This document shows, piece after piece, positions 11,578 to 34,480 of a DNA stretch of 64,000 nucleotides. The translations under genes were made by a program, and so were the position numbers. The notes beneath the pieces are model-generated. The model worked only from the letters and a program-made list of their open reading frames with translations. It was not told the origin of the DNA and ran no database searches. Source of the DNA: an uncultured Bacteroides sp. (GTDB lineage Bacteria; Bacteroidota; Bacteroidia; Bacteroidales; Bacteroidaceae); NCBI GenBank assembly GCA_947646015.1, contig CANSEY010000010.1:41946-105945 (forward strand), read 5' to 3'. How positions within the stretch are numbered: the first letter of the stretch is position 1; every line of letters starts with the position of its first letter.

Positions 11578-11717
11578 GAGAAATAATTTTAAGCCTTATT
11601 TTTTGATAAACAGGCAGAAGAATGAAGCGGAATATATGTTTTTACTTGATGCCTTAGGGGATTGATACGTTGCCCATGAACCCAAAGCTTTGTTGCAAAA
11701 CGACTAAAACGACTAAT

Positions 11718-19309: not shown

Positions 19310-19314
19310 TGGAT

Positions 19315-20577: not shown

Positions 20578-20634
20578 ATTTGTCTGTTTATCGAAATCTA
20601 GAATGTTGGATTGTTGTTTTAAATATAAATTGGT

Positions 20635-20781
20635 ATGAATAAAGTTCGATTGGCCTTGTATTTGGGTATATTGGTGCATCTGATCGGTTGCTCTTCTTTT
20701 CATTCAGAGAAGATTGATTTGTTAGCTCAGGTGCCATCTGATTGTCCGATTGTTCGGTTCTATATCACATTAATCATTTAA
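20635..20781 (+). pseudogene. 5' remnant of a propeller lipoprotein gene
   Basis: A 48-codon frame encodes a complete lipoprotein signal (LGILVHLIGCSS) and a short mature part containing SDCPIVRF. That matches the start of the intact gene at 33290 (SECPIVNV) and the DDCPLV of the gene at 9166. It then stops at 20779-20781. The rest of the propeller is absent, so this is most likely the 5' stump of a deleted gene, although a very small lipoprotein cannot be excluded. Confidence 0.65.
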
Positions 20782-20794
20782 AGTTACCGATATT

Positions 20795-21910
20795 ATGAAA
20801 TCACTTTTATTTTTTTGTTTAAGTACATTTCTCTTTTACTCGTGTAGTAAGAAAGAAAATAGTCTTTATCCTGTAATAGACTTAGCCGATGCTATCGAGA
20901 ATCCGGTGGAGAAATCTGTATATGATATTGCGGAAAGTGTAGAGGTCGTGCAATTAGAGACGAATGATTCGTTACTGATTCCATACGTGAGCCAGTTAAT
21001 AATGACCGATCAGTATTTTATCATAGGATATGGTAAGAAGTGCTCTCTTTTTTCTCATTCCGGAAAATTTGTTTGTGATATAGCTCAGAAAGGAAGTGGT
21101 CCGGAGGAATATACAATGTTGATGAATTTGCTTTATATAAACAATCGTGTTTTGATTACAGACTTAAATAATAAAGTTAATGTTTACTCCTTAAATGGGA
21201 AGTTTATTGAATCCTATCAGGCACTTCCGGACATGTTTTCTGCCATTTATCCAATGTCGGACAAGAACTTTATAGGTTTTAAAGCTCAGAGTGGAGGAGA
21301 TGAAAAAGAACGTCTTGTGTTCTATCGACGGGATGAAAAGAGGGGGGCTATTCCATATCAACAAAACTATCAGGCAAAAAAAGTTTGTTTCTTCCCTCAT
21401 GAAGCCCAATTTTCATCTTTACATGATAAGTTGTACTTTAAGCAGTTGCTTAATGACACTATTTTCTCTGTGGATACGGTAAAGCACTCTCTTTCTCCTG
21501 AATATATAATCGACTGGGGAAAGCTGAGATCTAACGATAGATTGCGCTACTCTTTGGAAAATCCGGACGAAGAATTGTTTTTGCACATGCCATACGTTCC
21601 TTTGTTCAGTATGACTGCTAATGGATTAGTCTTAGGGGCTATTACAGTAGACATAGATCAGAAGAAGCAATATTACTTAACTGCATTCTATGATAAGGCA
21701 AATCATCAGGCGGATCTTTTCGAACTAAAATTATCAAAAAAAGAGATGGATTATTTTGGTGAACCTACAGGTAAGCTTCCTCCTTATCTGGAGGGTGATA
21801 CTTTTTTCCCGGAGTATATTTCCCAAGATGGCAATTATTTGATTTCTGTCAGAACTCAACCTTTAAAAGAAGAATTGAATCCTGCGTTGATTGTAGTGAA
21901 GCTGAAATAA
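20795..21910 (+). CDS. 6-bladed beta-propeller lipoprotein
   Basis: The 371-residue lipoprotein has a signal ending LFYSCSKKEN, motif SVEVVQLETNDSLLIP, blade motif SLFSHSGKFVCDIAQKGSGPEEY and C-terminus EELNPALIVVKLK. It starts 13 bp after the truncated 20635 frame. It is the last gene of the plus-strand propeller array and faces the convergent GT8/LanC-like gene. It is shorter than the tandem copies. Ligand unknown. Confidence 0.8.
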   Translation: MKSLLFFCLSTFLFYSCSKKENSLYPVIDLADAIENPVEKSVYDIAESVEVVQLETNDSLLIPYVSQLIMTDQYFIIGYGKKCSLFSHSGKFVCDIAQKGSGPEEYTMLMNLLYINNRVLITDLNNKVNVYSLNGKFIESYQALPDMFSAIYPMSDKNFIGFKAQSGGDEKERLVFYRRDEKRGAIPYQQNYQAKKVCFFPHEAQFSSLHDKLYFKQLLNDTIFSVDTVKHSLSPEYIIDWGKLRSNDRLRYSLENPDEELFLHMPYVPLFSMTANGLVLGAITVDIDQKKQYYLTAFYDKANHQADLFELKLSKKEMDYFGEPTGKLPPYLEGDTFFPEYISQDGNYLISVRTQPLKEELNPALIVVKLK

Positions 21911-21970
21911 TGAATATGGCCAGACACTGATAGATTTCTGATTTTTATATAAGTATTAGTGGCTGCGGAA

Positions 21971-23320
21971 CTAATAGCCTGTTATTTGGGACAGGCTATT
22001 GCGCATTAATGTCTCTATTGGTGCTTGAGGGATGTTTAGTTCGTGTAACAGGCTAAGAACCAGATAAACTTCGCATAATACAGGCCGATTATTTGTATCC
22101 GGAAGCAACTCTGCTATCCAATTTATCAAGTGGAAGAGATATTCTTTTATTTTTAAGGCTGTGGGAGTGTTGAAGTTTTCTCTTGTACATAGACGTGAAT
22201 AGAAATAGTAAGCTAAGCCCGAAACTCCTTTTCCTAATCCGAGGTCAGTCAAAGACTTTTGTTCAATGACTGAATATATAGCGGAGTCTATTTGATGTAG
22301 TATTTCATCACTATTGCCTTCGACCAGTTTCTTTTGCAGTAAATATTCAATTCCCGTTCCAATGCCACATAACCCATTCTCGTAAGTGATAGGAACAGCC
22401 AGAGAGCAGTGGTCTATTATCTTGTTCAGTAATTTATCTGCCTCCTCTTCTAATTCTGTATCGTTCGTTTTTTGGCTTAATTGAAAAAGCTCAATCGTTC
22501 GTTCCATCCACCTTGATAAAAGTCGATTTTTGATTTTGTCCATAGAGCTATTGTATTTGCAATATAGCTCTTTTAAAACTAGCCAAGTGTACTCTTGATG
22601 CCATGGCTTTATACTTCCGGTATAATGAATGATGATGATGTCGGATAACATTTCAGGGGTATGCAAAGTTTCACTGGTAGTGAAATTATAGATATTGGGA
22701 ATTAGCTTTATTTTGCCTTTACATATACAATTAATTGCATCTTGATCCTGATATCGATCCCGGTTTATATAAATTGATGTGTGTTGCAATAGCTTTTCCT
22801 GTATTTTATCTTTTCTAAGGTCTTTCAGATTCAACAGTAGTACGCCTGCATTGATGTATACATCCTTTTCCGCTAGTTCCAGTATCTTTCTATAATTGAT
22901 TCGTCTTATAAAGATATCATCCACTCCTGCACAATAATAACCTTCCAAATCCAGTTCCCACAATGGCTCTATGCTGCCATTGATTACTAAATCTGCATCC
23001 AGGTATAGGGCTTTATCCAGATTGGGAAAAAGATCTGCGATGGCATAACGATAAAGAGTGTGTTCGGTGATGTATCCTCCTTTTTTCTTGAGTTGCTTGA
23101 ATGATTCTGAATCTATTATCTCCCATTGGATAGTTACACAGGTAAATACATTTTCTATTTCCTGAAGGAGCTCTTTGCTTTCTAACGAAATATAATCTGT
23201 CAGAATGTATATGCTTATATTCAAATATCTATTATTCTCAAGAATAGATACTATAGAGGTACAGCAATGGTCAATGTATTCTTCATTGATTGCAAAGAAG
23301 ATTGGTATTGTGTTTTTCAT
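21971..23320 (-). CDS. GT8-type glycosyltransferase fused to a LanC-like half domain
   Basis: Residues 1-270 are a GT8 (galactosyl/glucosyltransferase) domain. The DxD metal motif is YLDADLV (D108, D110), with NAG at 157-159 and HYTGSIKPWH at 232-241, so it should use a nucleotide sugar. Residues about 290-449 are helical, with LanC-like glycine motifs NGLCGIGTGIEYLLQ and GLGKGVSGLAYYFY. The zinc ligands of true lanthionine cyclases (WCxG, CHG) are absent. The same domain occurs alone at 31770. It is the only minus-strand gene of the peptide locus and is divergent from the GT4 gene. Likely role: adding a sugar to the peptide, with the helical domain perhaps docking substrate. The latter is inference. 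Confidence 0.85.
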   Translation of the reverse strand: MKNTIPIFFAINEEYIDHCCTSIVSILENNRYLNISIYILTDYISLESKELLQEIENVFTCVTIQWEIIDSESFKQLKKKGGYITEHTLYRYAIADLFPNLDKALYLDADLVINGSIEPLWELDLEGYYCAGVDDIFIRRINYRKILELAEKDVYINAGVLLLNLKDLRKDKIQEKLLQHTSIYINRDRYQDQDAINCICKGKIKLIPNIYNFTTSETLHTPEMLSDIIIIHYTGSIKPWHQEYTWLVLKELYCKYNSSMDKIKNRLLSRWMERTIELFQLSQKTNDTELEEEADKLLNKIIDHCSLAVPITYENGLCGIGTGIEYLLQKKLVEGNSDEILHQIDSAIYSVIEQKSLTDLGLGKGVSGLAYYFYSRLCTRENFNTPTALKIKEYLFHLINWIAELLPDTNNRPVLCEVYLVLSLLHELNIPQAPIETLMRNSLSQITGY

Positions 23321-23354
23321 GCTTGTGTGGTTAAAAAGGATTATTTGTCAGAGG

Positions 23355-23382
23355 CAAATATATCTGTTTTTTAGATATATTT
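23355..23382 (-). promoter_or_regulatory. -7 element and inverted repeat for the GT8/LanC-like gene
   Basis: CAAATATA at 23355-23362 reads TATATTTG on minus (TAnnTTTG). It overlaps a perfect 10-bp inverted repeat, AAATATATCT (23356-23365) with AGATATATTT (23373-23382), so a bound protein could block or control this promoter. Confidence 0.5.
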
Positions 23383-23414
23383 CTGTTTATAAGGATTATT
23401 TCTATAGGTATATG

Positions 23415-23446
23415 ACGTTCGGTATAAAAAAAGGCTACGTTCGGTA
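23415..23446 (+). promoter_or_regulatory. Direct repeat fitting a LytTR binding site
   Basis: ACGTTCGGTA occurs at 23415-23424 and again at 23437-23446, 22 bp start to start with a 12-bp spacer. The second copy with its preceding T fits the LytTR half-site [TA][AC][CA]GTTN[AG][TG] exactly; the first differs only at its first base. AgrA-type LytTR sites also use a 12-bp spacer. A weak -7 (TAATATTTG, 23459-23467) follows. The site lies between the divergent GT8/LanC-like and GT4 genes. Confidence 0.6.
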
Positions 23447-23549
23447 CATCTTTTCTGATAATATTTGGATATGAAGTAAGGTGGGCATACCTTGCAAATC
23501 TAATAGAATAATATTGTAGCCGGTTAATAAGAAGTTGAAAATCTATATT

Positions 23550-24782
23550 ATGAAACACTTATATATAATTGATCAATGTAGTTCTGCATCCCTTTATGGT
23601 ATAGGCACATATATTCAACAAATTATTAATATTTGGAGAATGGATGTTTGTAGTGCGTTGACAATTGTAAAGTTGGAATCTGGCACTAATGTAATAGAAG
23701 AAGGGTGGTCAGATGGAGTTCGATATTTATGGTTTCCTTCTGAAACAGAGGAAGAAGAGATGCGACATGAAAGTTACTGTTTGGATTTAGCAGAGTCGCT
23801 GAGATTTTGTATGAATGAAGAAGAAGATAATATATTTCTGGTAAATTATTTGAGTCATTCAGAACTCATTCTGAACCTAAAGAAGATTATTTCTAGTTGT
23901 CGTATTATAATTGTAATACATTACGTTGGATGGTACACCATGAAAAGGAGAAACGGAAGCTATTTGGAATGTCTTCTGGGTAAAGTATCCACTGACAGGG
24001 ATGCTACAGAGAAAATTGTCTATAAAGAATTTGTTGCAAATAAGGACTTTTTTCTGAAAGCAGACAGAGTGGTCTGTTTATCGGAGCATACTTATAATTT
24101 GCTTCGAAATGTTTATGGGATTGTGGAACAAAAAATAAGATTATTATATAATGGTCTGGTGGACGAAGCACGGATTTTAGATATAGAACAGCGTAAAATT
24201 CAAAAAGGTAATTTGTCATTTAAAGTGGAAGATCAAATAATTCTTTACGTGGGACGACTAAATCAGATCAAAGGTGTGTACTATCTAATTAATGCATTTC
24301 GAAAGCTTTTAGATTGTTTGCCTAATGTTCATTTGTTAGTGGTAGGTGATGGGGATTATTCTGCTTATTTGTCTGAGTGTGAGGGTATTTGGAACCATGT
24401 TACTTTTACTGGTCGAATCAGAAAGGAGAAATTATATCAGTTATATCAAATATCAGATATAGGTGTTCTTCCTTCTCTTCAAGAACAATGCAGTTATGTT
24501 GCTATAGAAATGATGATGCATGGAATACCTCTCATTGGCACAGCTTCTACAGGTTTAGAAGATATGATTCAGGAAGGGCTAAATGGATATGCTATATCTA
24601 TAGAGGATGTGGATGCTTACCCGGAAGTATTTATTGAGAAATTGAAATCCAGTATGGTTCGAATTTTATCTTTATCAATTGATGAAAAGAATGCTATGCG
24701 GCAGCAAAGTAGAAATGTCTATTTGAAACACTATACTTTGAATGTCATGCAAGAGGGAATGAAAGAGCTAGAGTGGATTTGA
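23550..24782 (+). CDS. GT4-family glycosyltransferase of the GG-peptide system
   Basis: The start is the ATG at 23550 (MKHLYIIDQC); a TTG at 23535 is less likely. The 410-residue protein has a GT-B fold. The C-terminal half shows ILYVGRLNQIKGVYYLINAF, VVGDGDYSAYLSE and the acceptor-side motif SLQEQCSYVAIEMMMHGIPL, where the second E replaces the usual EG/EA. The family is retaining, nucleotide-sugar dependent and cytosolic. A GT4 protein of this kind is a recurrent member of GG-Bacteroidales peptide loci (TIGR04157, from memory). The precursor gene follows after 48 bp, so the peptide is the likely acceptor, though this is not shown. Confidence 0.85.
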   Translation: MKHLYIIDQCSSASLYGIGTYIQQIINIWRMDVCSALTIVKLESGTNVIEEGWSDGVRYLWFPSETEEEEMRHESYCLDLAESLRFCMNEEEDNIFLVNYLSHSELILNLKKIISSCRIIIVIHYVGWYTMKRRNGSYLECLLGKVSTDRDATEKIVYKEFVANKDFFLKADRVVCLSEHTYNLLRNVYGIVEQKIRLLYNGLVDEARILDIEQRKIQKGNLSFKVEDQIILYVGRLNQIKGVYYLINAFRKLLDCLPNVHLLVVGDGDYSAYLSECEGIWNHVTFTGRIRKEKLYQLYQISDIGVLPSLQEQCSYVAIEMMMHGIPLIGTASTGLEDMIQEGLNGYAISIEDVDAYPEVFIEKLKSSMVRILSLSIDEKNAMRQQSRNVYLKHYTLNVMQEGMKELEWI

Positions 24783-24830
24783 AAGGCCACTCTGCTGAAT
24801 TTATAGTATTAACTTATAAAAATTATTATT

Positions 24831-25073
24831 ATGAAAAAAATTTCAGTATTGAAACTTGGTAATCTAGACAAAAAATGTCTGGAGGAGAAAGAAATGGATC
24901 GATTGGTTGGAGGTAATGAATGTGCATTTGGAACAGCTAATCAATGGGCTAATTATTATTCAGGCAAGTGTTCTTGTATTTGTGGTGGAAGTGGGGAAGA
25001 TGCTTACTACAATGTTATTTCTGATGTCGCTAAATTTACCAAGTCAAATGGTACGGTTTTGCCAAATAAGTGA
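24831..25073 (+). CDS. Ribosomal peptide precursor, GG-Bacteroidales type
   Basis: The 80-residue peptide has a leader of about 28 residues (MKKISVLKL..., LEEKEMDRLVGG) ending in Gly27-Gly28, the cleavage signal for bacteriocin-type C39 proteases. The core of 52 residues has cysteines at 31, 47, 49 and 51 in the pattern C-x15-CSCIC, followed by GGSG and an aromatic YY. This matches my memory of TIGR04149 precursors (KEMnnLrGG then a Cys/Gly-rich core). Its neighbours are a GT4 gene upstream and two radical SAM genes downstream, so the core is expected to be modified. The leader carries an unusual extra Cys16. The product and activity are unknown. Confidence 0.85.
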   Translation: MKKISVLKLGNLDKKCLEEKEMDRLVGGNECAFGTANQWANYYSGKCSCICGGSGEDAYYNVISDVAKFTKSNGTVLPNK

Positions 25074-25149
25074 TTTCTTATAGGTTGCTTATAGTGTGAT
25101 AAGAATTTTTTGATATTGAAATTTATCTGGCTATTAGGTAAAATGGGTG

Positions 25150-25180
25150 TGAAGTGGGACTTTTTATATTTTCCACTTCA
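25150..25180 (+). promoter_or_regulatory. Hairpin between precursor and downstream genes
   Basis: TGAAGTGG (25150-25157) pairs with CCACTTCA (25173-25180) over 8 bp around a 15-nt U-rich loop. It may protect or attenuate the precursor message. A weaker stem (CTTAT/ATAAG at 25088-25103, then AATTTTTT) lies just after the precursor stop. Confidence 0.45.
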
Positions 25181-25204
25181 TACTAATTTAATTGGCAATA
25201 TTAG

Positions 25205-26485
25205 ATGAAAAATACATTTTTGTTATTATCCATTTTCCTATTCTTGGCTTGTTCATCTGACAATACGAAGAAGAAGCAAACCAAGGTTATAGATCGTACT
25301 ATTCGAATAGGCAATGCAATGGAGTATCCTGTTTCAATGAAGCTTTCAGCTTTTGTTGATAGTATTACTTATGTTCCTTTAGAAACAACAAAAAGTTATG
25401 TAAAAGATAAAATGCTTATTTCTTACATGAAGCCATATTGGGTTGTTTATCCAGGAAGCTTATTTGATAAAAAAGGACAGTTTGTAGCAAATATTGGTGC
25501 GCTGGGGCAAGGGCCAGGTGAGGAAAGTGGTTTTGGATATAGTATCTTCTATGATCGTGATCGCGACCTTTTCTATACCCAAGGAGATAAGATTATCCAG
25601 TTTGATGCAAAAGGAAAATTTACAGGGAAGGAAATTAGAATAGCATATCGTGATAAAAGTATAGAAGGTAAAGTCGCTTCTGGATTAAAAAATGTATATG
25701 CTATGGTAAAATCTGGGGAAAATTATTTGATAGTAAATTATCCTGATTCTGTATTTTGGATGGATGAAGAGTTGAATATTCGACATAGTGCTAGAATTAT
25801 TCCGGATAGTCTCTTTCTTAATCCTCCGGGAATTGGTGGGGGAATGCCTTATACTTTTTCTGATTATCAGGATACGACACTTTTTTATAACTGTTTTACA
25901 GATGCTATTTATGCAGTATCGGATACGGGACTCCAAAAACGCTGGACTCTTGATTTTAAGGGTCTAAAAGCGGATAATCGGTGCTTTTTAAATGATTATA
26001 AGAAATTATATTTAAAAGAGTATACTAAAATAGTTTCCTCATCAAAAGGAAATGTAGAAACAATGAAAGAGAAAGCAAAAAATAGTGAACTAGCTCAGCT
26101 AATTGATAATAAAAAGTGGGTATATCAAGTCAGTGAGGGAAAGCGGTATTTATTTTTATGGTGGTTGAATCTGAAAGCTTTTTCTTCAGCTTGGAGAGGG
26201 TATAATGAGTCACATATGGCTCTTTATGACAAGCAAACAGGTGAGACTGTAGCAATAGCAGGAGACGGTCTGATAGATGATATTGATAATGGAATGACAT
26301 TTTTTCCACAATATGGCATTTGTAATAATGCGATGGTTTCTTCGGTTTGGCCGTTTGAACTGAAAGAATATATTCAAAAAAAGGCGGAAAAGGGAGAGAG
26401 CGTGAGCAATCGTTTGATTGCACTTGCCGATTCATTGGATGATGAAGAAAATCCGATTCTTATAATAGCTCATTTAAAACAATAA
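25205..26485 (+). CDS. 6-bladed beta-propeller lipoprotein inside the peptide operon
   Basis: The 426-residue lipoprotein has signal LFLACSSDNTKK, motif SITYVPLETTKSYVKDK, blade motif FDKKGQFVANIGALGQGPGEE and C-terminus DDEENPILIIAHLKQ. It sits between the precursor and the first radical SAM gene, with only 6 bp to the latter's ATG. It is therefore probably part of the same transcript, and this is the strongest contextual link between propeller lipoproteins and the modified peptide. It could bind the exported product or serve in self-protection; neither is shown. Confidence 0.8.
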   Translation: MKNTFLLLSIFLFLACSSDNTKKKQTKVIDRTIRIGNAMEYPVSMKLSAFVDSITYVPLETTKSYVKDKMLISYMKPYWVVYPGSLFDKKGQFVANIGALGQGPGEESGFGYSIFYDRDRDLFYTQGDKIIQFDAKGKFTGKEIRIAYRDKSIEGKVASGLKNVYAMVKSGENYLIVNYPDSVFWMDEELNIRHSARIIPDSLFLNPPGIGGGMPYTFSDYQDTTLFYNCFTDAIYAVSDTGLQKRWTLDFKGLKADNRCFLNDYKKLYLKEYTKIVSSSKGNVETMKEKAKNSELAQLIDNKKWVYQVSEGKRYLFLWWLNLKAFSSAWRGYNESHMALYDKQTGETVAIAGDGLIDDIDNGMTFFPQYGICNNAMVSSVWPFELKEYIQKKAEKGESVSNRLIALADSLDDEENPILIIAHLKQ

Positions 26486-26491
26486 TTGAAT

Positions 26492-27976
26492 ATGGAATCA
26501 ACGGTTTATTTTGAAAGTAATAATGGAAATGGATATTTATATGATATGCAGAATTCTTGTATAGTTAATTGTCATCCAGTATTTAAGGATTTCATGAAGT
26601 TGTCAGCAGACAATCTTGAGAGTGATCTATATGCTGTTATTCAAACTAAATATCCTTCAATGACAATAGAAGAATTGAAACATTATTATCAAAAATATTT
26701 GCATTTGAGAGGGGGGGGACTATTTGGATCTATTGACTCCAAAAAGCATTTGGCTGGGCGAATATCAGCTCAAGTAGTGGCACAACAATTAGCTAATATA
26801 GACAATGTGGTTTTTCAGGTTACACATCAATGTAATTTAAATTGTGTTTATTGTTGTTATGGGGATCTATATAATCATGCAGATATTGCACCCCGCCATG
26901 ATTCCATGAATTTTGAGCAGGCTAAAGTTCTGATAGACCATTTAGTAGTTCTTTGGGATTCTGATTTGAATTTGTCACAAGGTGGGAATATTATGTTAGG
27001 CTTTTATGGTGGAGAACCTTTGATTAATTTCAGGTTGATAGAACAGATTGTGGAATATGTCCAAACACTTCATTTAAAAAATCATTCGACTTTTTTATTT
27101 AGTATGACTACTAATGGCATACTACTTGATCGTTATATGGATTTTCTAGTGAAGCATGAGGTTTCTCTATTAATTAGTTTAGATGGAAATAGCGTACATA
27201 ATCAATTGCGAGTAGATAAAAAAGGAACCCCTTCATTCGATCGAGTTTATGCTAATATCAACTTATTGAGGGAGAGATATCCTGGCTATTTTAAACGTAA
27301 GGTTCATTTTAATTCTGTATTAAACTGTTACTCTAATGCGGAGTCGGTACATCAGTTTATTTATGGCGAATTTAATAAAGTTCCTGGGATAGAGACAATT
27401 ACTTATACGGGAGTGAAAAAGGGCAAAATGGAGCATTTTCGTAAGATTTATCGTCCTTATGTTGAGTCTACTGATCTTTTAAGAGCTCGTGAAAGAAACT
27501 CTGCTCAAATAAGAAATGCTGGCTATTTTTTTTATTATCATATAGGTAATTCGTATAGGCATTATATAGAGTTGCTTTTAAAAGAGAGAAAGGGATACCC
27601 ACGAATACCCACAGGTACTTGTTTGCCTTTTTGGAAAAAGCTTTTTGTGACTCCGAGTGGTGATTTGTTGGCTTGCGAAAGAATAGGGTTTCAGCATGTG
27701 TTGGGGAGGATAGAAGAGGCCGTGAAAGTCGATTGTGTAGAGATTGCAGATAAGTACAATCGCTATTATGAGGCGATAAGTAAGCAATGTGAGCATTGCT
27801 ATCAAGCGGATTTTTGCCCTCACTGTCTATTTCAATTCGATTTTAAAGGTGGTCTTCCTGTCTGTGAAGTTGCTATGGATGAGAACGAATATAAAGAATA
27901 TTTAAGCGATAAGATTTCTATGTTAGAGATCGCTCCAGATTTATATAATAGTGTTAATACAATGATTTTTGCGTGA
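26492..27976 (+). CDS. Radical SAM/SPASM peptide maturase, GG-Bacteroidales type
   Basis: The start is the ATG at 26492, not the TTG at 26486. The 494-residue enzyme has an N-terminal substrate-binding region, then the radical SAM motif CNLNCVYC (C114, C118, C121) and the SAM-binding FYGGEPL. A C-terminal SPASM domain shows GTCLPFWKKLFVTPSGDLLAC and CEHCYQADFCPHC, which hold auxiliary Fe-S clusters. Such enzymes make C-S, C-C or other crosslinks in ribosomal peptides. I recall the TIGR04148 maturase as the standard partner of this precursor family. The stop overlaps the next gene's ATG by one base, so the two are translated together. Confidence 0.9.
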   Translation: MESTVYFESNNGNGYLYDMQNSCIVNCHPVFKDFMKLSADNLESDLYAVIQTKYPSMTIEELKHYYQKYLHLRGGGLFGSIDSKKHLAGRISAQVVAQQLANIDNVVFQVTHQCNLNCVYCCYGDLYNHADIAPRHDSMNFEQAKVLIDHLVVLWDSDLNLSQGGNIMLGFYGGEPLINFRLIEQIVEYVQTLHLKNHSTFLFSMTTNGILLDRYMDFLVKHEVSLLISLDGNSVHNQLRVDKKGTPSFDRVYANINLLRERYPGYFKRKVHFNSVLNCYSNAESVHQFIYGEFNKVPGIETITYTGVKKGKMEHFRKIYRPYVESTDLLRARERNSAQIRNAGYFFYYHIGNSYRHYIELLLKERKGYPRIPTGTCLPFWKKLFVTPSGDLLACERIGFQHVLGRIEEAVKVDCVEIADKYNRYYEAISKQCEHCYQADFCPHCLFQFDFKGGLPVCEVAMDENEYKEYLSDKISMLEIAPDLYNSVNTMIFA

Positions 27977-29223
27977 TGAAGAGATTTTGGCTTTTTTTAG
28001 AATCGTATGTTTTCGTATGGACAAACCATGAAGCCGTATTGCTATACGATTCTCTGTCTGGGAAAGGATTGACATGGAATCTTACAGATCCTGTCCGTAC
28101 GATTGTTATGGAATTGATAAAAAAAGAGAATTTGTATTGTATGGAACTAACAGAGAATGATTTGAATGTTCCTGAAGTAGCGGATTTTGTGTCCGAAATT
28201 CGGCGAAATTTTATCGGTGACTTATATTCGCAGGAAGAGTTTAGGCAGAAACCATTAGTTATTGTGCCTGAAGTTAGTGTGAATGAGAATTTGGAAAATG
28301 ATGTCGAAACAATGAATAATTTGGAGCTTTTTGGACAAAAGATTGTAAATAATCTACGTGTTGTAACGATGCGTCTGACCGGTGAATGTTCCATAAATTG
28401 TCGTTATTGTCAAACTGTTGATAAACAAATTGTATGGTGCCGTAAACAAGATAATCGGCTTTCCTACAATGAGATATGTCGTTTGTTAGAACAGCTTAAA
28501 CACACTCCAGTCACTTTAATTAATTTTGTAGGTGGAAATGTACTGTCATATCCTTTCTTAGATGAGTTGTTGAATGAACTTAAAAAATATTCTTTTGGAA
28601 AGTGTTTTTATCTTTATTATAAACAATCTGTTGATTATGAGCAGATTAGAATTAAGCTATTGAATGACCCATCTGTGTCTATAAAATTTTTGATTGATTA
28701 TCCTGTAAATGAATATGCAATAAGTGCCTGTGTTGCTTTACCTAATGAACGTGTAGAATACTGTTTTGCAGTGACTTCTGAAGAAGAATTTCAAGAAGTG
28801 AGCCGAATTATTGATGTTTATAAATTGAAAGCTAATATTTATCCATTTTATACAATTGATAACTTGGATTTCTTTGAAAAATATGTTTTCCAGACCCTTG
28901 AGGATGTGATGGCTTTGTGTCGAACGAAAAAAGATATTTTTGCTCACCAGTTAGTGAATACGCACTTTTTTGGTACATTATACATTGATTGTGACGGAAA
29001 GGTATACCCAAATTTTAATTCAAAGTCAATAGGAACAATTGATGGTTATGTAAAGGACTGGGTATTTCAAGAGATGAAACAAGGGAAGATGTGGCATTGG
29101 ACTCGTGATTCATTGCCTGCTTGTAAAGAATGTTTGTACAAATATCTTTGTCCTTCACCCTCTAATTACGAATTAGTAATTGGAAAACCTAATTTGTGTC
29201 ATGTTAAACCGTGGAAATGCTAG
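27976..29223 (+). CDS. Second radical SAM-like protein of the peptide system
   Basis: The ATG at 27976 overlaps the previous stop (TGATG). The 415-residue protein has the N-terminal layout of its partner, and a CSINCRYC motif at C138, C142 and C145 in RLTGECSINCRYCQ. Near the C-terminus is CKECLYKYLCPSP...LCHVKPWKC, possible auxiliary-cluster cysteines. Its place corresponds to the pseudo-rSAM partner (TIGR04150 in memory), a group named for frequent loss of the cluster motif. This member keeps all three cysteines. In place of GGEP it has FVGGNVL, so SAM binding may be altered. It could be a second enzyme or a maturase partner. Confidence 0.8.
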   Translation: MKRFWLFLESYVFVWTNHEAVLLYDSLSGKGLTWNLTDPVRTIVMELIKKENLYCMELTENDLNVPEVADFVSEIRRNFIGDLYSQEEFRQKPLVIVPEVSVNENLENDVETMNNLELFGQKIVNNLRVVTMRLTGECSINCRYCQTVDKQIVWCRKQDNRLSYNEICRLLEQLKHTPVTLINFVGGNVLSYPFLDELLNELKKYSFGKCFYLYYKQSVDYEQIRIKLLNDPSVSIKFLIDYPVNEYAISACVALPNERVEYCFAVTSEEEFQEVSRIIDVYKLKANIYPFYTIDNLDFFEKYVFQTLEDVMALCRTKKDIFAHQLVNTHFFGTLYIDCDGKVYPNFNSKSIGTIDGYVKDWVFQEMKQGKMWHWTRDSLPACKECLYKYLCPSPSNYELVIGKPNLCHVKPWKC

Positions 29224-29336
29224 CTTATCTTCATAATACTCGGTTGGATGTCGTGGCAGTACTTCCTGTTTGAGATAGGAAAAGAGGAATTGTATGAAGA
29301 GTCAGCCGGAGTTAGGAACTTAATAAGGGGTCAGAT

Positions 29337-31142
29337 ATGCAGGCTATTATATTGGCAGCAGGAATGGGTAGGCGTCTGGGAGAATTGACCCGGTACGACA
29401 CTAAGTGTATGATTGAGGTGAACGGTATCCGGATCATAGATCGGTTACTGGCAAACCTGGCAGTCGCAAGACTATCGAGGATTGTGCTTGTGATTGGTTT
29501 TCAAGGTGACAAACTACGGGCGTATCTGGGAAATGAATATTGCGGAATTCCTATTTATTATCTGGAAAACCCTTACTATGCACATACCAATAATATTTAT
29601 TCTCTGTTTCTGGCACGGCACCACTTAGCGTCTGATGATACTTTATTGTTAGAATCGGATATTGTTTTTGAGAAGAGAATACTTGAAAGAGTGCTCGAAG
29701 AACCGTATCCGAATGTAGCAGTAGTAGACCGTTATAAGAGTTGGATGGACGGGACTATGGTGACTGTGGATGAAAAGCAGTTTATTGTGGACTTTGTATC
29801 TAAACATACTTTTTCGTACGAAAAAACTTCTACTTATTTTAAGACGGTGAATATCTATCGTTTTAGTAAGGAGTTTTCTGTAGGTAAGTACGTACCTTTT
29901 CTGGAAGCCTATTGCAAATGTTTTGATAATAGTGCATATTACGAACAAATACTGGCCGTTTTGTCTTTGTTGGATAAAGCCGGGCTGAAGGCTTTGCCGC
30001 TTGAGGGTGAAAAGTGGTATGAGATAGATGACATGCAGGATTTAGATATTGCCGAAACGCTATTTGGTAAGAAAGAAGGGCTTTTGCCCGGTTACCAGAA
30101 ACGTTATGGAGGGTATTGGCGCTTCCCTTTCTTGTTTGATTTTGCTTATCTGGTGAATCCACATTTCCCGACAGAAAGGATGCTGGAAGAACTGAAGGCT
30201 AATTTTGATAAACTGCTCAGGCAATACCCTTCGGGGAGTTATGTAAACAGGCGATTGGTGGCGAAGCACTGGAACATTCCTGCGGAGGCTGTCGCGGTGG
30301 GGAATGGCGCGGCAGAGTTGATAAGAAAGCTGATGGAGTTGCTTTCCGGTAGAATGGGGGTGATTCTTCCTACATTTGAAGAATATCTGGTGCGTGATGA
30401 CCGGATAGAGACTTTCTTGCCGTTGGGGCCAGGTTATCGCTATACCGTAAGCGACCTGAAAACATTTTTTGAGGATAAGGGAGTGACTTCATTACTGTTG
30501 CTGAATCCGGATAACCCCTCCGGAAATAGTATCCCTTACGAGGATTTGATTTCATTAGCGGGATGGACTCAGGAGCGTTCGATACGGCTGATTGTGGATG
30601 AGTCTTTTATTGACTTCTCGGAGGGAGGAGAAGAAACTTCTCTGATTGATGACAAGATACTGAAGGAGTATAATCATCTGGTGGTGATAAAGAGCCTGTC
30701 TAAGTCACATGGAATTCCCGGATTACGATTGGGAATTGCTGTTTCCGGTGACCATAAATTAATGGATGAATTACAGCAGAAACTTCCGGTCTGGAATATA
30801 AACTCTTTGGCGGAGTACTATTTACAGATTCAGGACAAATACACCATCGACTACCGGCAGGCATGTGCCCGCTTTAGAGAGGAAAGAACGCTCTTTTTTG
30901 AAGAACTTCAGGAGGTAGGCTATTTAGCGGTATTTCCTTCACAAGCAAACTTCTTTTTATGTGAAGTGACCCATAAGTACAGCGCCCGAGAGCTTGCGGA
31001 AGTTTTGCTGAGAGAGCATGATATTCTGGTAAAAGACTGTAGCTTGAAGAGGGGAATGTATGGAAAGCAGTATATTCGTATTGCTATCAGGAGTAAAGAG
31101 GAAAACCGGTATTTGGCCGGAATATTAAAATATAAATTATGA
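29337..31142 (+). CDS. LicC-like nucleotidyltransferase fused to CobD/HisC-like PLP enzyme
   Basis: Residues 1-245 are a nucleotidyltransferase: LAAGMGRRLGELT, LLESDIVFE (E105, D107) and EIDDMQDLD, as in choline-phosphate cytidylyltransferases. Residues 250-601 are a fold-type I aminotransferase of the CobD/HisC branch, with NPDNPSGN (390-397), DESFIDF (D421) and the PLP lysine K456 in SLSKSHGIPGLRLG. CobD-like enzymes decarboxylate phosphothreonine or phosphoserine. A fusion could thus make a phospho-amino-alcohol and activate it as a CDP derivative. Alternatively the PLP half is a true transaminase. The LicD gene overlaps by 4 bp, which supports the activation-and-transfer reading. GC content rises sharply here compared with the preceding genes. 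Confidence 0.85.
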   Translation: MQAIILAAGMGRRLGELTRYDTKCMIEVNGIRIIDRLLANLAVARLSRIVLVIGFQGDKLRAYLGNEYCGIPIYYLENPYYAHTNNIYSLFLARHHLASDDTLLLESDIVFEKRILERVLEEPYPNVAVVDRYKSWMDGTMVTVDEKQFIVDFVSKHTFSYEKTSTYFKTVNIYRFSKEFSVGKYVPFLEAYCKCFDNSAYYEQILAVLSLLDKAGLKALPLEGEKWYEIDDMQDLDIAETLFGKKEGLLPGYQKRYGGYWRFPFLFDFAYLVNPHFPTERMLEELKANFDKLLRQYPSGSYVNRRLVAKHWNIPAEAVAVGNGAAELIRKLMELLSGRMGVILPTFEEYLVRDDRIETFLPLGPGYRYTVSDLKTFFEDKGVTSLLLLNPDNPSGNSIPYEDLISLAGWTQERSIRLIVDESFIDFSEGGEETSLIDDKILKEYNHLVVIKSLSKSHGIPGLRLGIAVSGDHKLMDELQQKLPVWNINSLAEYYLQIQDKYTIDYRQACARFREERTLFFEELQEVGYLAVFPSQANFFLCEVTHKYSARELAEVLLREHDILVKDCSLKRGMYGKQYIRIAIRSKEENRYLAGILKYKL

Positions 31143-31765
31143 ATATAGATATAAAGGAGGCACATCGGAGGATGCTTTATTTATTGCAGTCTTTCGATAC
31201 TGTTTGCAAGAAGCACGATATTGATTATTGGCTCGATTATGGTACACTGCTGGGAGCTATCCGGCATCAGGGGTTTATTCCTTGGGATACAGATACGGAT
31301 GTGGGGATGTTAAGGAGTGATTATGGAGTATTTCTGGAGAAAGGTGTGCCGGAACTGCCTCAGGATATTTTCTTTCAGACTCCGGAAACAGAACCGGCCA
31401 TGGCTTCATGGAGGTGGTTGGTTGAGGCGCGGTTGAGAGATCGGCACAGCCGGTATGTTCCGGATAAAAAGACTCCGGCCGAGCCGATGCAGTTCGGTGG
31501 ATTACAGTTGGATCTTTTCATCTATGATTGGGATGGTAAGTATGAGAATGCTTTGTCGAACAGTTTTGAACGGAATTTGAGTGAGAGCCGTATTCATTTG
31601 CGGCTGGATGAGGTGGAATATCTGGATACTGCACGATTTGAAGGAGTGGAGTTTCCGGTTCCGTCAGGATACGATACTTATCTGACCCGTTGTTATGGAG
31701 ATTATAGAACGTTTCCCCCGGAGGAGGAAAGGCAAATTCCGGAAGTGGTTGCCTGGTCGGTGTAA
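31139..31765 (+). CDS. LicD-family phosphotransferase
   Basis: LicD proteins transfer phosphocholine or related groups from a CDP donor to sugars. The 208-residue protein shows the family core YWLDYGTLLGAIRHQGF (D33, G35, H43) and the metal-binding WDTDTDVGM (D50, D52, D54), then LQLDLFIYD. It is shorter than typical LicD proteins (about 270 residues) but reads as complete to YGDYRTFPP near the C-terminus. The ATG overlaps the preceding stop in ATGA, so it is coupled to the activating fusion enzyme. The acceptor is probably a glycan built by the neighbouring glycosyltransferases. Confidence 0.88.
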   Translation: MNIDIKEAHRRMLYLLQSFDTVCKKHDIDYWLDYGTLLGAIRHQGFIPWDTDTDVGMLRSDYGVFLEKGVPELPQDIFFQTPETEPAMASWRWLVEARLRDRHSRYVPDKKTPAEPMQFGGLQLDLFIYDWDGKYENALSNSFERNLSESRIHLRLDEVEYLDTARFEGVEFPVPSGYDTYLTRCYGDYRTFPPEEERQIPEVVAWSV

Positions 31766-31769
31766 TAAA

Positions 31770-32399
31770 ATGATTGATTACGTCAATAAAGAAAATATGG
31801 AAAGCGTAAGAGGGATAGAAAATCCGGGGATGATGGGAGAAATGGGGAAAATCATCGGATTCTATCGTCTTTATCGGCAGACGGCTGAAGAAGAGTGGGA
31901 AGAGAAAGCAGAAGTGTTGCTGGATGAGGTGATGGAGAATTGTTCTTTGGAACTTCCGGTGACTTATGGTGACGGTTTGTGCGGAGTAGGTGTCGGAATT
32001 GAGTATCTGTTGCAGGAGGGCTTTGTGGAAGGGGATGCCGACGAGATTCTGTGGCAGATCGATTGCAGGGTATTTAACACGATTAATAGTAGGGCGATCG
32101 GAACTTTAGGCATCGGGAAAGGTATTTGTGGTCTCGCTTATTATCTGTATTACCGGTTGTCCCGGAGGAAAGGTGAGGAAGACATCAAGGTGCTGCGAAT
32201 GAAAGAGCATTTAATTTACCTGATTGACTGGATAGCAGACTCGCTGCCCGGAGTCAGGGAAAGTTCACTTTTCGAAGAGGTGTTTTTTATTCTTTGCCTG
32301 TTGCATCGGTTGGATGTATTCAATGCAAAAGTCGAGAAACTGATGGAGTACTGTGAGAAGGGCATGATTACATCTGGAAGGGAGGCGGTATGGATCTGA
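31770..32399 (+). CDS. Stand-alone LanC-like half-domain protein
   Basis: I choose the ATG at 31770, 4 bp after the licD stop; an in-frame ATG at 31695 would overlap licD. The roughly 209-residue protein closely matches the C-terminus of the GT8 fusion at 21971. Shared segments are GDGLCGVGVGIEYLLQ, ADEILWQID, GIGKGICGLAYYLYYRL and LIDWIADSLP. It is about half the size of a LanC toroid and lacks the zinc cysteines and the CHG motif, so cyclase activity is unlikely. No dehydratase (LanB/LanM) is present. It may be a carrier, chaperone or recognition subunit. The next gene overlaps by 10 bp. Confidence 0.75.
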   Translation: MIDYVNKENMESVRGIENPGMMGEMGKIIGFYRLYRQTAEEEWEEKAEVLLDEVMENCSLELPVTYGDGLCGVGVGIEYLLQEGFVEGDADEILWQIDCRVFNTINSRAIGTLGIGKGICGLAYYLYYRLSRRKGEEDIKVLRMKEHLIYLIDWIADSLPGVRESSLFEEVFFILCLLHRLDVFNAKVEKLMEYCEKGMITSGREAVWI

Positions 32400-33151
32400 C
32401 AAGAGAGGTTAGCATTGTCATCCCCTTGCGGGTAGATAATCCGGAGAGGGCGGAGAATCTTCGGTTTATCCTTTCTTTGCTGCTACAGCAGACAGAGGTG
32501 TCTGTGGATATTCTTGAGGCGGATACGGAGCAACGTTTTTATTTGTCTGAGACGTGTGAGAGGTTACGCTATCGGTTTGTGAAAGATGATGATCCGGTAT
32601 TCTACCGGACACGTTATTTAAATATATTGTTGAGATCGGCTAAGTTCCCGATTGCAGGCATCTGGGATACGGATGTGATTATTCCGCCGGTTCAGTTGAG
32701 AGAAGCGGTCGGCAGGATTTGTTCGGGCTGTGTGATGTGTTTCCCGTATGACGGGCGTTTTATCTTTCTGAATGAAGCTATGAGTGACAGAATCCGCAAG
32801 GACGTATCAGTGTTGGAAAAGGTGGATGCTACTTCAATAGGAATGAGACCTTCGGTGGGAGGAGCTTTTCTTGTGAACAGGGTTGCCTATCTGCGGGCAG
32901 GCGGAGAGAATGAAGCGTTTTATGGTTGGGGCCCCGAAGATGCCGAAAGAGTGAAGCGTCTGGAGATATTAGAGTTGCCCATTGCACGTGTAAAAGGACC
33001 GTTATATCATCTTCATCATCCGAGGGGCATCAATTCGGGGTTTGATATGGGTGAACGGGATAAACGTAATTTAGAAGCATTGCTGGCTACTTGCAGAAGG
33101 AGTAAGGCGGAGATGCTAAGGTGGCTTGAACAACCAACCTTTCCGGACTGA
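32390..33151 (+). CDS. GT2-like glycosyltransferase with galactosyltransferase-type C-domain
   Basis: The 253-residue protein starts with a GT-A nucleotide-binding segment (REVSIVIPLRVDNPERAENL) and has the metal motif WDTDVIIPP. A C-terminal segment GGENEAFYGWGPEDAERVKRL and YHLHHPRG resembles the GT7 C-terminal domain that follows many GT2 domains in galactosaminyl/galactosyltransferases. It should transfer a hexose or hexosamine from a nucleotide sugar in the cytosol. It overlaps the LanC-like gene by 10 bp and ends the glycan-decorating block. Sugar and acceptor are unknown. Confidence 0.8.
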   Translation: MDLTREVSIVIPLRVDNPERAENLRFILSLLLQQTEVSVDILEADTEQRFYLSETCERLRYRFVKDDDPVFYRTRYLNILLRSAKFPIAGIWDTDVIIPPVQLREAVGRICSGCVMCFPYDGRFIFLNEAMSDRIRKDVSVLEKVDATSIGMRPSVGGAFLVNRVAYLRAGGENEAFYGWGPEDAERVKRLEILELPIARVKGPLYHLHHPRGINSGFDMGERDKRNLEALLATCRRSKAEMLRWLEQPTFPD

Positions 33152-33289: not shown

Positions 33290-34480
33290 ATGAAAAACAC
33301 AATATTATTGTTAAACGGTTTATGGCTGCTCGGGCTGGTGGCCTGTCAGCCAAAATCTTCTTCTTTATCCGAATGCCCGATTGTCAATGTACGCTCTGCT
33401 TTGCAGGAAGAGACACCTATCTCCATGAAAGAAGATGTGGTGAGCATACAATATATTCCTTTGGAAACAACAGACTCGTGCCTGATTAGCAATCTGCTGA
33501 ATCTGCAGGTGACGACGGATTACATGTTTATGTATAACGGAAAGACTGAAGAAGTGTTGCAATTTGATCGAAAGGGTAAGTTCATACGTCGGGTCGGCCG
33601 CCAGGGAAATGGGCCGGGAGAGTATAGTATGATAAGTGAACTTGCGGTTGATGATAGCAATAAAGAATTATCTATATTCCAGTATGGAGGGGATGCATTG
33701 GTGTATTCGTATGACGGAAGTTTTCTACGGAATGATACAACGGTGAAGCAGGCCGGTGGAATGTATGTCTTTGCGGATGGGAAGAGAGCATTGAAAGGAT
33801 TGGTCATGAAGCCTTTTGAACAAGCACCATGGGCAGGCGCATTGCAACAGGCTGATGGTTTGCTGTTAAAGTCTAAGTCTCTTTTTCCACAAGGACTCTC
33901 TCAGGACGTTTGTTTCATGAAAGAAATCTGCTTTTCTCCTTCTACAGAAGGGGTACTGCTGTTTACTGCATGCAATGATACGGTGGCCGGGATTTATGCT
34001 AATGGAATAGAGCCGGCTTATGTTCTGAAACGGGAAAACCCGACTGAATATTATGTGGATATTGCTAATATTAATAAATTCAGGGATAATACAGTTGAAA
34101 CGGATCAGATTATTGGAGTCTATGATCTGTTCGAATCTCCTCACTATCTTTACTTGCGTCTGTACAAAGGAGATGCTATTTTTATACAAAGATTCGATAA
34201 GAAGACCGGTGAACTGAAATCGCAGCGTATTCCGGATGATTATTTGGAATGTAGTGCTGCCATTCCAGGCGGCAATGTAATTGGCATGGATAATGATATA
34301 GATGGAGGGATACCTTTCTGGCCGGAGTATGTAATGGCGGATGGGGGACGCGCACAAGTGGTGAATGCTGATATTCTTTTGGCTTTACGTGAAAAAGGAT
34401 ATCTAAAGCAGGCTCCTGATGTATTGAATATCGGGGATGAAGCCAATCCGGTAGTGATTCTTTATAAATTTAAAAGATAG
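33290..34480 (+). CDS. 6-bladed beta-propeller lipoprotein
   Basis: The 396-residue lipoprotein has signal LLGLVACQPKSS and the early segment SECPIVNV that also survives in the fragment at 20635. It has the motif SIQYIPLETTDSCLISN, the blade motif QFDRKGKFIRRVGRQGNGPGEY and the end DEANPVVILYKFKR. It is the first gene of a short operon with another propeller 8 bp downstream and a GH27 glycosidase. GC content is higher than in the 13-29 kb array. Ligand unknown. Confidence 0.8.
   Translation: MKNTILLLNGLWLLGLVACQPKSSSLSECPIVNVRSALQEETPISMKEDVVSIQYIPLETTDSCLISNLLNLQVTTDYMFMYNGKTEEVLQFDRKGKFIRRVGRQGNGPGEYSMISELAVDDSNKELSIFQYGGDALVYSYDGSFLRNDTTVKQAGGMYVFADGKRALKGLVMKPFEQAPWAGALQQADGLLLKSKSLFPQGLSQDVCFMKEICFSPSTEGVLLFTACNDTVAGIYANGIEPAYVLKRENPTEYYVDIANINKFRDNTVETDQIIGVYDLFESPHYLYLRLYKGDAIFIQRFDKKTGELKSQRIPDDYLECSAAIPGGNVIGMDNDIDGGIPFWPEYVMADGGRAQVVNADILLALREKGYLKQAPDVLNIGDEANPVVILYKFKR

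What the first reader, a model, noticed from the sequence alone, without database searches (positions are those of the whole stretch)
21971..33151. A modified-peptide locus that also carries a full set for glycan and phospho-amino-alcohol decoration
Seen: a GG-leader precursor (24831), two CX3CX2C radical SAM proteins, GT4, GT8 and GT2-like glycosyltransferases, LanC-like half domains, a LicC/CobD-like fusion and LicD, most with gaps of a few bases or overlaps. Known: GG-Bacteroidales precursors go with radical SAM maturases and a GT4 protein; LicC/LicD pairs add phosphocholine-type groups to glycans. Inference: the mature product may be a crosslinked peptide bearing a sugar chain capped with a phospho-amino-alcohol. 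I know of no described product with that combination.
Basis: partly seen in the sequence, partly recalled or inferred. Interest (0 to 1): 0.85.

Follow-up and report, generated by a model that had tools for sequence, protein, structure and literature searches.

The report
Bacteroides glycopeptide locus with swapped cassette
A gut Bacteroides carries genes that probably make a cross-linked, sugar-coated peptide with an unusual phospho-amino-alcohol cap, and related strains swap the peptide part while keeping spare copies of its partner lipoprotein, a pattern expected of a weapon and its antidote but not yet proven.

Summary
In detail: every named gene is present. Precursor (TIGR04149), radical SAM maturase (TIGR04148), partner (TIGR04150) and GT4 (TIGR04157) pass their curated cut-offs.

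Fusion plus LicD occurs in 4 of 56 TIGR04150-type loci, all in the B. fragilis group. Elsewhere the fusion lies in stretches without these peptide genes (36 of 36 examined), 19 of them with a LicD-like gene. In the B. fragilis group the four-gene block stands beside the peptide cassette in 4 of 4 genomes, and LicD is followed by LanC-half and GT7C genes whose relatives occur in another locus of this family. Recruitment of a polysaccharide-decorating module onto a glycopeptide remains plausible.

New here: core peptide, lipoprotein and most of the maturase are exchanged between strains within 97-100% identical flanks. Full-length counterparts of two of four cassette lipoproteins, plus fragments of a third, lie without a precursor in other strains' arrays. 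Across Bacteroidales most precursors found are followed by their own exported protein. Best reading: a strain-variable glycosylated RiPP with lipoprotein immunity. No product or activity has been shown.

The parts
21971..23320 (-). GT8 glycosyltransferase with C-terminal LanC-like half domain (about residues 259-449)
   Evidence: PF01501 168.9 bits; LANC_like weak, 15.6 bits; tail 43% identical to the other LanC half; reduced to a remnant in G023
23535..24782 (+). GT4 glycosyltransferase, TIGR04157 (likely true start ATG 23550)
   Evidence: 546.3 bits, cut-off 400
24831..25073 (+). precursor peptide, GG leader, Cys-rich core
   Evidence: TIGR04149 41.8 bits, cut-off 25; only leader-like ORF in 8-36 kb
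25205..26485 (+). cassette ('cognate') beta-propeller lipoprotein
26486..27976 (+). radical SAM peptide maturase TIGR04148
   Evidence: 419.1 bits, cut-off 300; CNLNCVYC
27973..29223 (+). TIGR04150 partner, CX3CX2C intact
   Evidence: 502.2 bits, cut-off 250; CSINCRYC
29337..31142 (+). LicC-like cytidylyltransferase fused to CobD-like PLP domain
   Evidence: PF12804 and PF00155; PDB sequence matches 6oux (C-terminal) and 1jyk (N-terminal)
31139..31765 (+). LicD phosphotransferase
   Evidence: PF04991 111 bits
31695..32399 (+). LanC-like half domain protein (likely start ATG 31770)
   Evidence: homology to GT8 tail; weak nisin-cyclase-like fold match
32390..33151 (+). GT7C/GT2-like glycosyltransferase
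   Evidence: PF02709 30.9 bits; 35% identical to GT7C of the second locus
24915..27700 (.). approximate block exchanged relative to NCTC 9343-type genome G017
   Evidence: 200-bp blocks 64-80.5% identical between 25,201 and 27,600, flanks 97-100%
9166..10824 (+). flanking propeller protein (552 aa)
   Evidence: PF17170
13028..14221 (+). flanking propeller lipoprotein
   Evidence: PF17170/PF16288
15101..16414 (+). flanking propeller lipoprotein
   Evidence: PF17170
16465..17772 (+). flanking propeller lipoprotein
   Evidence: PF17170
17823..19130 (+). flanking propeller lipoprotein
   Evidence: PF17170
19309..20577 (+). orphan propeller lipoprotein: 92.5% identical to the cassette propeller of Q1F2-type genome G023
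20603..20781 (+). remnant of the S82-type (G018) cassette propeller
   Evidence: 83.7% DNA identity over 153 columns, 20603-20754
20795..21910 (+). flanking propeller lipoprotein, second copy inside the G018 cassette
33290..34480 (+). flanking propeller lipoprotein downstream
   Evidence: PF17170
34489..35622 (+). flanking propeller protein downstream
   Evidence: PF17170

Best explanation
The locus makes a strain-variable glycosylated RiPP. Shown by sequence: a GG-leader precursor with a Cys-rich core, a TIGR04148 radical SAM maturase with its TIGR04150 partner, three glycosyltransferases and two LanC-like half domains. Inferred: the maturase cross-links the Cys-rich core; the glycosyltransferases, with the LanC halves as accessory domains, build a short glycan on it; the fusion enzyme decarboxylates O-phosphoserine (or O-phosphothreonine) to phosphoethanolamine (or aminopropanol phosphate) and activates it as the CDP form; LicD transfers it to the glycan; one of the genome's C39-peptidase exporters removes the leader and secretes the product. 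The cassette propeller lipoprotein is the cognate partner of that peptide, most likely its immunity protein. Strains exchange core + lipoprotein + maturase as a unit and keep non-cognate lipoproteins as an orphan array. Rough separate odds: glycosylated rSAM RiPP 0.8; LicD acts on its glycan 0.5; lipoprotein is immunity 0.4-0.45. The stated confidence is for the glycopeptide with the phospho-amino-alcohol cap plus a cognate-partner role for the lipoprotein.
For: Family assignments above curated cut-offs. Fusion domains match 6oux (threonine-phosphate-decarboxylase-like, 133.8 bits) and LicC 1jyk (40 bits). PEP mutase was not found in 19 of 23 fusion-carrying genomes searched (of 24 known; several incomplete), among them G023, rated 100% complete, so a phosphonate is not required. 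Fusion, LicD, LanC half and GT7C are adjacent to the cassette in 4 of 4 B. fragilis-group genomes at 97-100% protein identity, while cassette genes differ: precursor 74% (G017) and 43% (G023); maturase 76/44/33% and TIGR04150 98/39/21% (G017/G023/G018). Against G017 the exchange limits lie just after the leader and inside the maturase. Counterparts of cassette lipoproteins outside cassettes: the window's at 86% in G017; G023's at 91.5-92.5% in three genomes; G018's as a truncated copy in G017 and a remnant in the window. The DNA match is close to gene-precise: 25176-26496 for the ORF 25205-26485. No leader-like ORF remains in the window's array. dN/dS 0.07-0.53 over 18 pairs. Next gene after 45 distinct precursors: 33 of 45 a propeller, GLPGLI-type or retropepsin-PDZ-like protein, plus 4 unclassified with signal peptide and lipobox; the same crude signal test of 45 next genes exported, against 0 of 53 TIGR04148, 0 of 23 GT4, 0 of 10 GT7C, 1 of 57 TIGR04150 and 3 of 28 LanC-half proteins. 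Loci with two or four precursors named in the report have at least one such gene per precursor. C39 peptidases: 4 in the genome, none on the window's contig.
Against: Fusion and LicD are mostly found away from peptide loci, and 52 of 56 TIGR04150-type loci lack them. No product, glycan, acceptor or killing activity is known. 5 of 45 precursors are followed directly by the maturase and 2 by a non-exported unclassified protein; the S82-type precursor (found by eye, missed by the profile) has its lipoprotein before it. G017's cassette lipoprotein has no close counterpart elsewhere (best 63%), and G018's has only fragments. G023 has no propeller in the stretch fetched upstream, and its GT8 is a remnant. 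Immunity proteins of about 420 residues would be large for a RiPP (recalled). Only four genomes of the group were available, and they were found by the fusion itself.
Confidence: 0.42

Rival explanations
1. The fusion and LicD decorate a cell-surface polysaccharide or lipid-linked glycan and are only neighbours of the peptide genes.
For: In 36 of 36 examined fusion stretches outside the B. fragilis group there is no TIGR04148, TIGR04150, leader or LanC-half match; LicD-like genes are near in 19 of 36, some weak.
Against: In the B. fragilis group the pair lies between cassette and LanC-half/GT7C genes in 4 of 4 genomes, with short gene overlaps inside the block; no second full-length fusion was found in the (74.7% complete) genome.
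Confidence: 0.33
2. The propeller, GLPGLI-type and retropepsin-PDZ-like proteins are receptors, chaperones or processing partners of the peptide (signalling or surface display), not immunity proteins; flanking copies are leftovers of cassette exchange.
For: The partners belong to three unrelated families; beta-propellers often bind ligands (BtuG lipoproteins and virginiamycin B lyase are among the fold matches, at middling scores); some array members are degraded (window 20603-20781 and 19184-19336; G017 19918-20289).
Against: Several intact flanking copies occur in two or three genomes with dN/dS below 1 and no leader-like ORF beside them in the window.
Confidence: 0.4
3. The LanC-like halves are true cyclases and the product is a lanthionine peptide.
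For: LANC_like similarity and a nisin-cyclase fold match of weak significance.
Against: The match covers profile positions 18-117 of 350 only; no Cys-His dipeptide in the two window halves; PMC10352776 (section 13 read, other passages seen) reports missing zinc motifs in such proteins and no LanB in the genomes it screened; the domain is fused to glycosyltransferases.
Confidence: 0.03
4. The fusion activates a phosphonate (PntC-like) rather than a phospho-amino-alcohol.
For: Same two-domain plan as Treponema PntC-AEPT, PDB 6pd1; PEP mutase exists in G017 and G018.
Against: C-terminal domain is CobD/HisC-like, while that of 6pd1 is named class V; PEP mutase not found in 19 of 23 carriers (G000 itself is only 74.7% complete).
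Confidence: 0.08

Closest known systems
GG-Bacteroidales rSAM systems (TIGR04148/04149/04150/04157) and B. fragilis BGC5 of PMC10352776
   Same: GG precursor, rSAM, TIGR04150 partner, LanC-like proteins, glycosyltransferases; [quoted passage not shown]
   Different: By its description BGC5 resembles this genome's second locus (contig C17), not the window locus; the section and passages I saw mention no LicC/CobD, LicD, propeller array or strain exchange
Lic pathway (LicC/LicD) and Pnt pathway (PntC-AEPT, PMC6697681, passages seen)
   Same: MobA-like cytidylyltransferase; LicD-like neighbours; PLP-domain fusion plan
   Different: PLP domain is CobD-like; neighbours are peptide-maturation genes
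SMUL_1544 / CobD
   Same: closest solved relatives of the C-terminal domain include threonine-phosphate decarboxylases (6oux 133.8 bits, 1lc5 110.8); that 6oux is SMUL_1544 is recalled, not from a call
   Different: fused to a cytidylyltransferase; no cobamide genes seen beside it in the window annotation
Fab1/Rfab1 of B. fragilis (PMC8406203, passages seen)
   Same: bacteriocin gene followed by immunity gene; immunity gene also present without the toxin in some strains
   Different: Fab1 is a predicted 50-kDa protein activated by fragipain, not a RiPP; no homology was tested here

Membership tests
GG-Bacteroidales rSAM RiPP system | TIGR04149 precursor over cut-off | tested here: met
   41.8 vs 25 bits
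GG-Bacteroidales rSAM RiPP system | TIGR04148 maturase with CX3CX2C | tested here: met
   419.1 vs 300 bits; CNLNCVYC
GG-Bacteroidales rSAM RiPP system | TIGR04150 and TIGR04157 partners | tested here: met
   502.2 vs 250; 546.3 vs 400 bits
GG-Bacteroidales rSAM RiPP system | C39 exporter in the locus (common, not obligatory) | tested here: not met
   none on the window's contig; 4 elsewhere in the genome, one near the second TIGR04149 locus. 38 of 56 loci have an exporter match by my profile, one of them only a 72-aa fragment (L028)
Pseudo-rSAM (name of TIGR04150) | loss of the CX3CX2C motif (recalled meaning of 'pseudo') | tested here: not met
   CSINCRYC kept
LanC lanthionine cyclase | zinc triad (Cys ... 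Cys-His) | tested here: not met
   no Cys-His dipeptide in the two window halves; only the N-terminal part of the profile matched
CobD threonine-phosphate decarboxylase (TIGR01140) | curated score cut-off | tested here: not met
   175 vs 290.55 bits; works-like claim only
PntC-AEPT phosphonate enzyme | AEP transaminase domain (class V in 6pd1) and PEP mutase in genome | tested here: not met
   C-domain matches PF00155 class I/II and 6pd1 aligns only over the N-terminal domain; PEP mutase not found in G000 (74.7% complete) or G023
LicD family | PF04991 gathering score | tested here: met
   111 vs 22.6 bits
Lic phosphocholine pathway | transfer of phosphocholine to a glycan | not testable with these tools
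   no acceptor or product known
Orphan immunity array | effector-adjacent gene found in other strains without the effector | tested here: met
   full-length for 2 of 4 cassette lipoproteins, fragments for 1, none for 1
Orphan immunity array | protection against the cognate effector | not testable with these tools
   needs a bench test

The most novel reading that the evidence does not exclude
A RiPP antagonism system in Bacteroidales in which each modified glycopeptide has its own exported partner protein (propeller lipoprotein, GLPGLI-type or retropepsin-PDZ-like protein) that gives immunity; strains exchange core peptide, partner and maturase as one cassette beside a constant decorating block that, in B. 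fragilis, adds a phosphoethanolamine or aminopropanol-phosphate cap; and strains keep orphan partners against rival peptides.
Probability: 0.27. Interest if true: 0.87.

Novelty: new variant of a known kind. Interest (0 to 1): 0.64.

Why it matters
If the cap is real, one peptide would join rSAM cross-linking, glycosylation and CDP-amino-alcohol decoration, a combination I did not find in the papers searched. If the lipoproteins are immunity proteins, a family of propeller lipoproteins annotated only as domains of unknown function (DUF5128/DUF4934) gains a role, and these peptides become candidates for strain competition in the human gut. The cassette borders and strain pairs make a direct test possible in a laboratory strain.

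Tried and rejected
Rejected: lanthionine cyclase role for the LanC halves. Held unlikely: phosphonate pathway. Looked for Bacteroides-type promoter matches (consensus recalled; 4 in 64 kb, 2.1 expected by chance, none at 21971-33151) and invertible repeats near the locus (13 imperfect pairs in one stretch, none convincing, none in two others): no result. The LanC-half model has low confidence (pLDDT 69.5); no structure hit has E below 0.001, 14-3-3 proteins rank first and nisin cyclase is at rank 6, E 0.17. Propeller model (pLDDT 75.3): only 4raa, a putative exported B. fragilis protein, stands out; it says nothing on function. Paper searches for TIGR04149, Bacteroidales rSAM RiPP with LicD, B. 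fragilis rSAM RiPP, CobD-cytidylyltransferase fusion, propeller lipoprotein with rSAM, orphan immunity in B. fragilis, GLPGLI with RiPP, LicD with RiPP and Ser-P decarboxylase gave no description of this combination in the listings; the library is open-access only, and most listed papers were not opened.

Row choices. Of 29 over-cut-off TIGR04150 places, 27 were fetched (the second-locus copies of G017 and G023 were not), plus two below cut-off (G018:C9, G012:C141); of 31 non-own places, 28 were fetched. L112 was dropped from the 56 because it overlaps L099. Identical precursors and motif sequences were counted once; the signal-peptide control counts were not de-duplicated. Precursor counts leave out the S82-type precursor, which the profile missed; one L126 precursor overlaps its retropepsin-like gene by 64 bases and fell outside my distance limit, so it counts as 'none'. 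The PEP mutase search left out one fusion carrier (G070, a weak 27% match). Propellers were not scanned for. Many loci are cut by contig ends, so absences are lower-confidence. My class profiles were built from window and relative sequences and are not curated. The names 'GLPGLI' (Pfam calls it PF09697 Porph_ging) and 'retropepsin-PDZ' (no Pfam match) are recalled or by eye.

Full report
What is there. The window lies in a Bacteroides fragilis-group genome (the fusion protein is 100% and 98% identical to those of B. fragilis S82 and Q1F2; the window is contig C10 of an assembly rated 74.7% complete). The four GG-Bacteroidales families pass NCBI's curated cut-offs: precursor TIGR04149 41.8 bits (25), maturase TIGR04148 419.1 (300), partner TIGR04150 502.2 (250), GT4 TIGR04157 546.3 (400). 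The precursor has a 28-residue leader ending in GG and a Cys-rich core with a CSCIC cluster. GT8-LanC is on the minus strand and so is not part of the plus-strand run.

The phospho-amino-alcohol block. The 601-residue fusion joins a LicC-like cytidylyltransferase to a CobD/HisC-like PLP domain. Its solved matches include 6oux, a threonine-phosphate-decarboxylase-like enzyme (133.8 bits, the best), CobD 1lc5 (110.8) and, for the N-terminal domain, LicC 1jyk (40.0). From recall, 6oux is SMUL_1544; PMC4585668 (passages seen) says SMUL_1544 might make ethanolamine phosphate. The fusion has the same plan as Treponema PntC-AEPT (6pd1; PMC6697681, passages seen), but 6pd1 aligns only over the N-terminal domain and its second domain is named class V, and PEP mutase was not found in 19 of 23 fusion-carrying genomes searched, among them G023, rated 100% complete (several others are incomplete). 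I therefore infer CDP-ethanolamine or CDP-aminopropanol as its product, not a CMP-phosphonate.

Is the block tied to the peptide? The fusion occurs in 24 of 158 Bacteroides genomes. In 4, all of the B. fragilis group, it is beside the rSAM genes; in the other 20 it is not. Those 20 stretches hold no TIGR04148, TIGR04150, leader or LanC-half match, 10 hold a LicD-like gene, and one holds a weak GT7C match of 30 bits (one of the 20, G070, is itself only a weak 27% fusion match). Across Bacteroidales 13 of 393 genomes carry the fusion at E 1e-100: the own genome and 12 others. All 12 others were fetched: none has peptide genes in the stretch, 8 have LicD-like genes (three at 31-34 bits); of 4 more distant loci, none has peptide genes and 1 has LicD. 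In reverse, of 56 TIGR04150-type loci gathered, fusion and LicD occur in 4. So the pair is mainly a glycan-decorating module that the B. fragilis group has next to a peptide locus. In favour of a shared product there: LicD is followed by a LanC-half and a GT7C gene, and genes of both kinds (GT7C 35% identical) stand in the same genome's second TIGR04149 locus without LicD; the arrangement is the same in 4 of 4 genomes, though these four were found through the fusion. In 25 of the 56 loci or more the exporter gene stands after the TIGR04150 gene or elsewhere nearby (38 of 56 have one); in the S82-type genome a 72-residue fragment resembling the exporter (32 bits) lies between TIGR04150 gene and fusion, which suggests that the block took the place of an exporter gene there.

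What the second locus and other loci show. The second TIGR04149 locus (contig C17, L050/L056) has two precursors, each followed by a retropepsin/PDZ-like lipoprotein (named by eye; the one tested has no Pfam match), the maturase, a second rSAM, the TIGR04150 protein, GT4, GT7C and LanC halves, a CMP-sugar-type cytidylyltransferase, a GT10 and a C39 exporter. It fits the published description of BGC5 of B. fragilis (PMC10352776, section 13 read and passages found) better than the window locus does. Another Bacteroides locus has a 1,523-residue protein holding GT2, cytidylyltransferase and methyltransferase domains beside the rSAM genes (L100). LanC halves are fused to GT8 (window), GT4 (L109) and GT2 (L094, L110). 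I read these as glycan-building sets that differ from locus to locus.

Cassette exchange. Against the NCTC 9343-type genome G017, 200-bp blocks are 97-100% identical from 20,769 to 24,800 and from 27,801 on, 87.5% at 24,801-25,000, 44.7% at 25,001-25,200, 64-80.5% from 25,201 to 27,600, and 89.0% at 27,601-27,800. The leader is identical in both; the core is not. The exchanged block is core + propeller + most of the maturase. Against G023 (Q1F2-type) and G018 (S82-type) the exchange reaches from the GT4 side into or past the TIGR04150 gene, while fusion, LicD, LanC half and GT7C stay at 97-100% protein identity. GT8 is 97-99% identical in G017 and G018 but only a remnant in G023.

Orphan lipoproteins. 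Propeller paralogues in the window are 20-32% identical to the cassette copy; closer paralogues are a tandem group (64-89%) and a G017 pair (63%). Against that background: the window's cassette propeller is 86% identical to a G017 propeller upstream of its locus; the G023 cassette propeller is 91.5-92.5% identical to upstream propellers in the window, G017 and G018; the G018 cassette propeller has a truncated counterpart in G017 (92% over 104 residues) and a remnant in the window; the G017 cassette propeller has none closer than 63%. The DNA match of the window's cassette propeller stops within about 30 bases of the gene on either side, and no leader-like ORF is left in the window's array. dN/dS is 0.07-0.53 in 18 pairs, several with few substitutions. 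G023 shows no propeller in the upstream stretch fetched.

One exported partner per precursor. In the gathered loci, 45 distinct precursors were found by profile. The next gene is a propeller in 19, a GLPGLI-type protein in 9, a retropepsin-PDZ-like protein in 5, unclassified in 6 (4 with signal peptide and lipobox, 2 without), the maturase in 5, and none within the limit in 1. By a crude signal test the next gene is exported in 32 of 45, against 0 of 53 maturases, 0 of 23 GT4, 0 of 10 GT7C, 1 of 57 TIGR04150 and 3 of 28 LanC-half proteins; the test itself recognises 58 of 63 propellers, 9 of 12 GLPGLI-type and 8 of 10 retropepsin-like proteins. L097 has four precursors and four GLPGLI-type genes with one maturase; L050 two precursors, each followed by its own; L105 two precursors, each followed by a propeller. 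Exceptions: the five precursors followed by the maturase, the two followed by non-exported proteins, and the S82-type precursor, which follows its lipoprotein.

Mechanism. Shown: gene content, family membership, exchange borders, orphan copies. Inferred: cross-linking of the Cys-rich core, glycosylation, cap transfer by LicD, export by a C39 transporter encoded elsewhere, immunity by the lipoprotein. Precedent for an immunity gene kept without its toxin in B. fragilis is Rfab1 (PMC8406203, passages seen). The main alternatives are a cell-surface role for the LicD pair and a receptor or chaperone role for the lipoproteins; neither is excluded.

Verdict.

Noticed in passing
L050 262-15196 and L056 (contig C17 of the own genome): Second TIGR04149 locus with two precursors, each followed by a retropepsin/PDZ-like lipoprotein, plus CMP-sugar-type cytidylyltransferase, GT10, 824-residue GT and C39 exporter.
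   Followed up: partly
L097 3548-8610: Four GG-leader precursors, each followed by its own GLPGLI-type exported protein, sharing one maturase set.
   Followed up: partly
L099 7322-9964 and L101 7258-9900: 880-residue protein, outer-membrane-like by eye, encoded between maturase and TIGR04150 gene; no Pfam match for the one tested.
   Followed up: no
L100 4424-8995: 1,523-residue protein with GT2, cytidylyltransferase and methyltransferase domains beside rSAM genes.
   Followed up: no
L028 8884-9999: 98% identical copy of the window's 20795-21910 propeller inserted between maturase and TIGR04150 gene in the S82-type genome.
   Followed up: no
L028 11249-11467: 72-residue ORF with a weak match (32 bits) to the C39 exporter, between TIGR04150 gene and fusion: a possible exporter remnant at the junction.
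   Followed up: no
many cores, e.g. L050 9608-9919, L097, L108, L139: Recurring core motifs: CxC in 40 of 45 precursors, Nxx(A/V)N in 29, GG(S/A)S in 19; a possible modification site.
   Followed up: partly
TIGR04150 proteins: 15 of 28 distinct 'pseudo-rSAM' proteins keep CX3CX2C, so the family may include active enzymes.
   Followed up: partly
window 11670-12860: DUF4221 protein next to the propeller array; a solved DUF4221 protein (3s9j) is among the fold matches of the cassette propeller.
   Followed up: no
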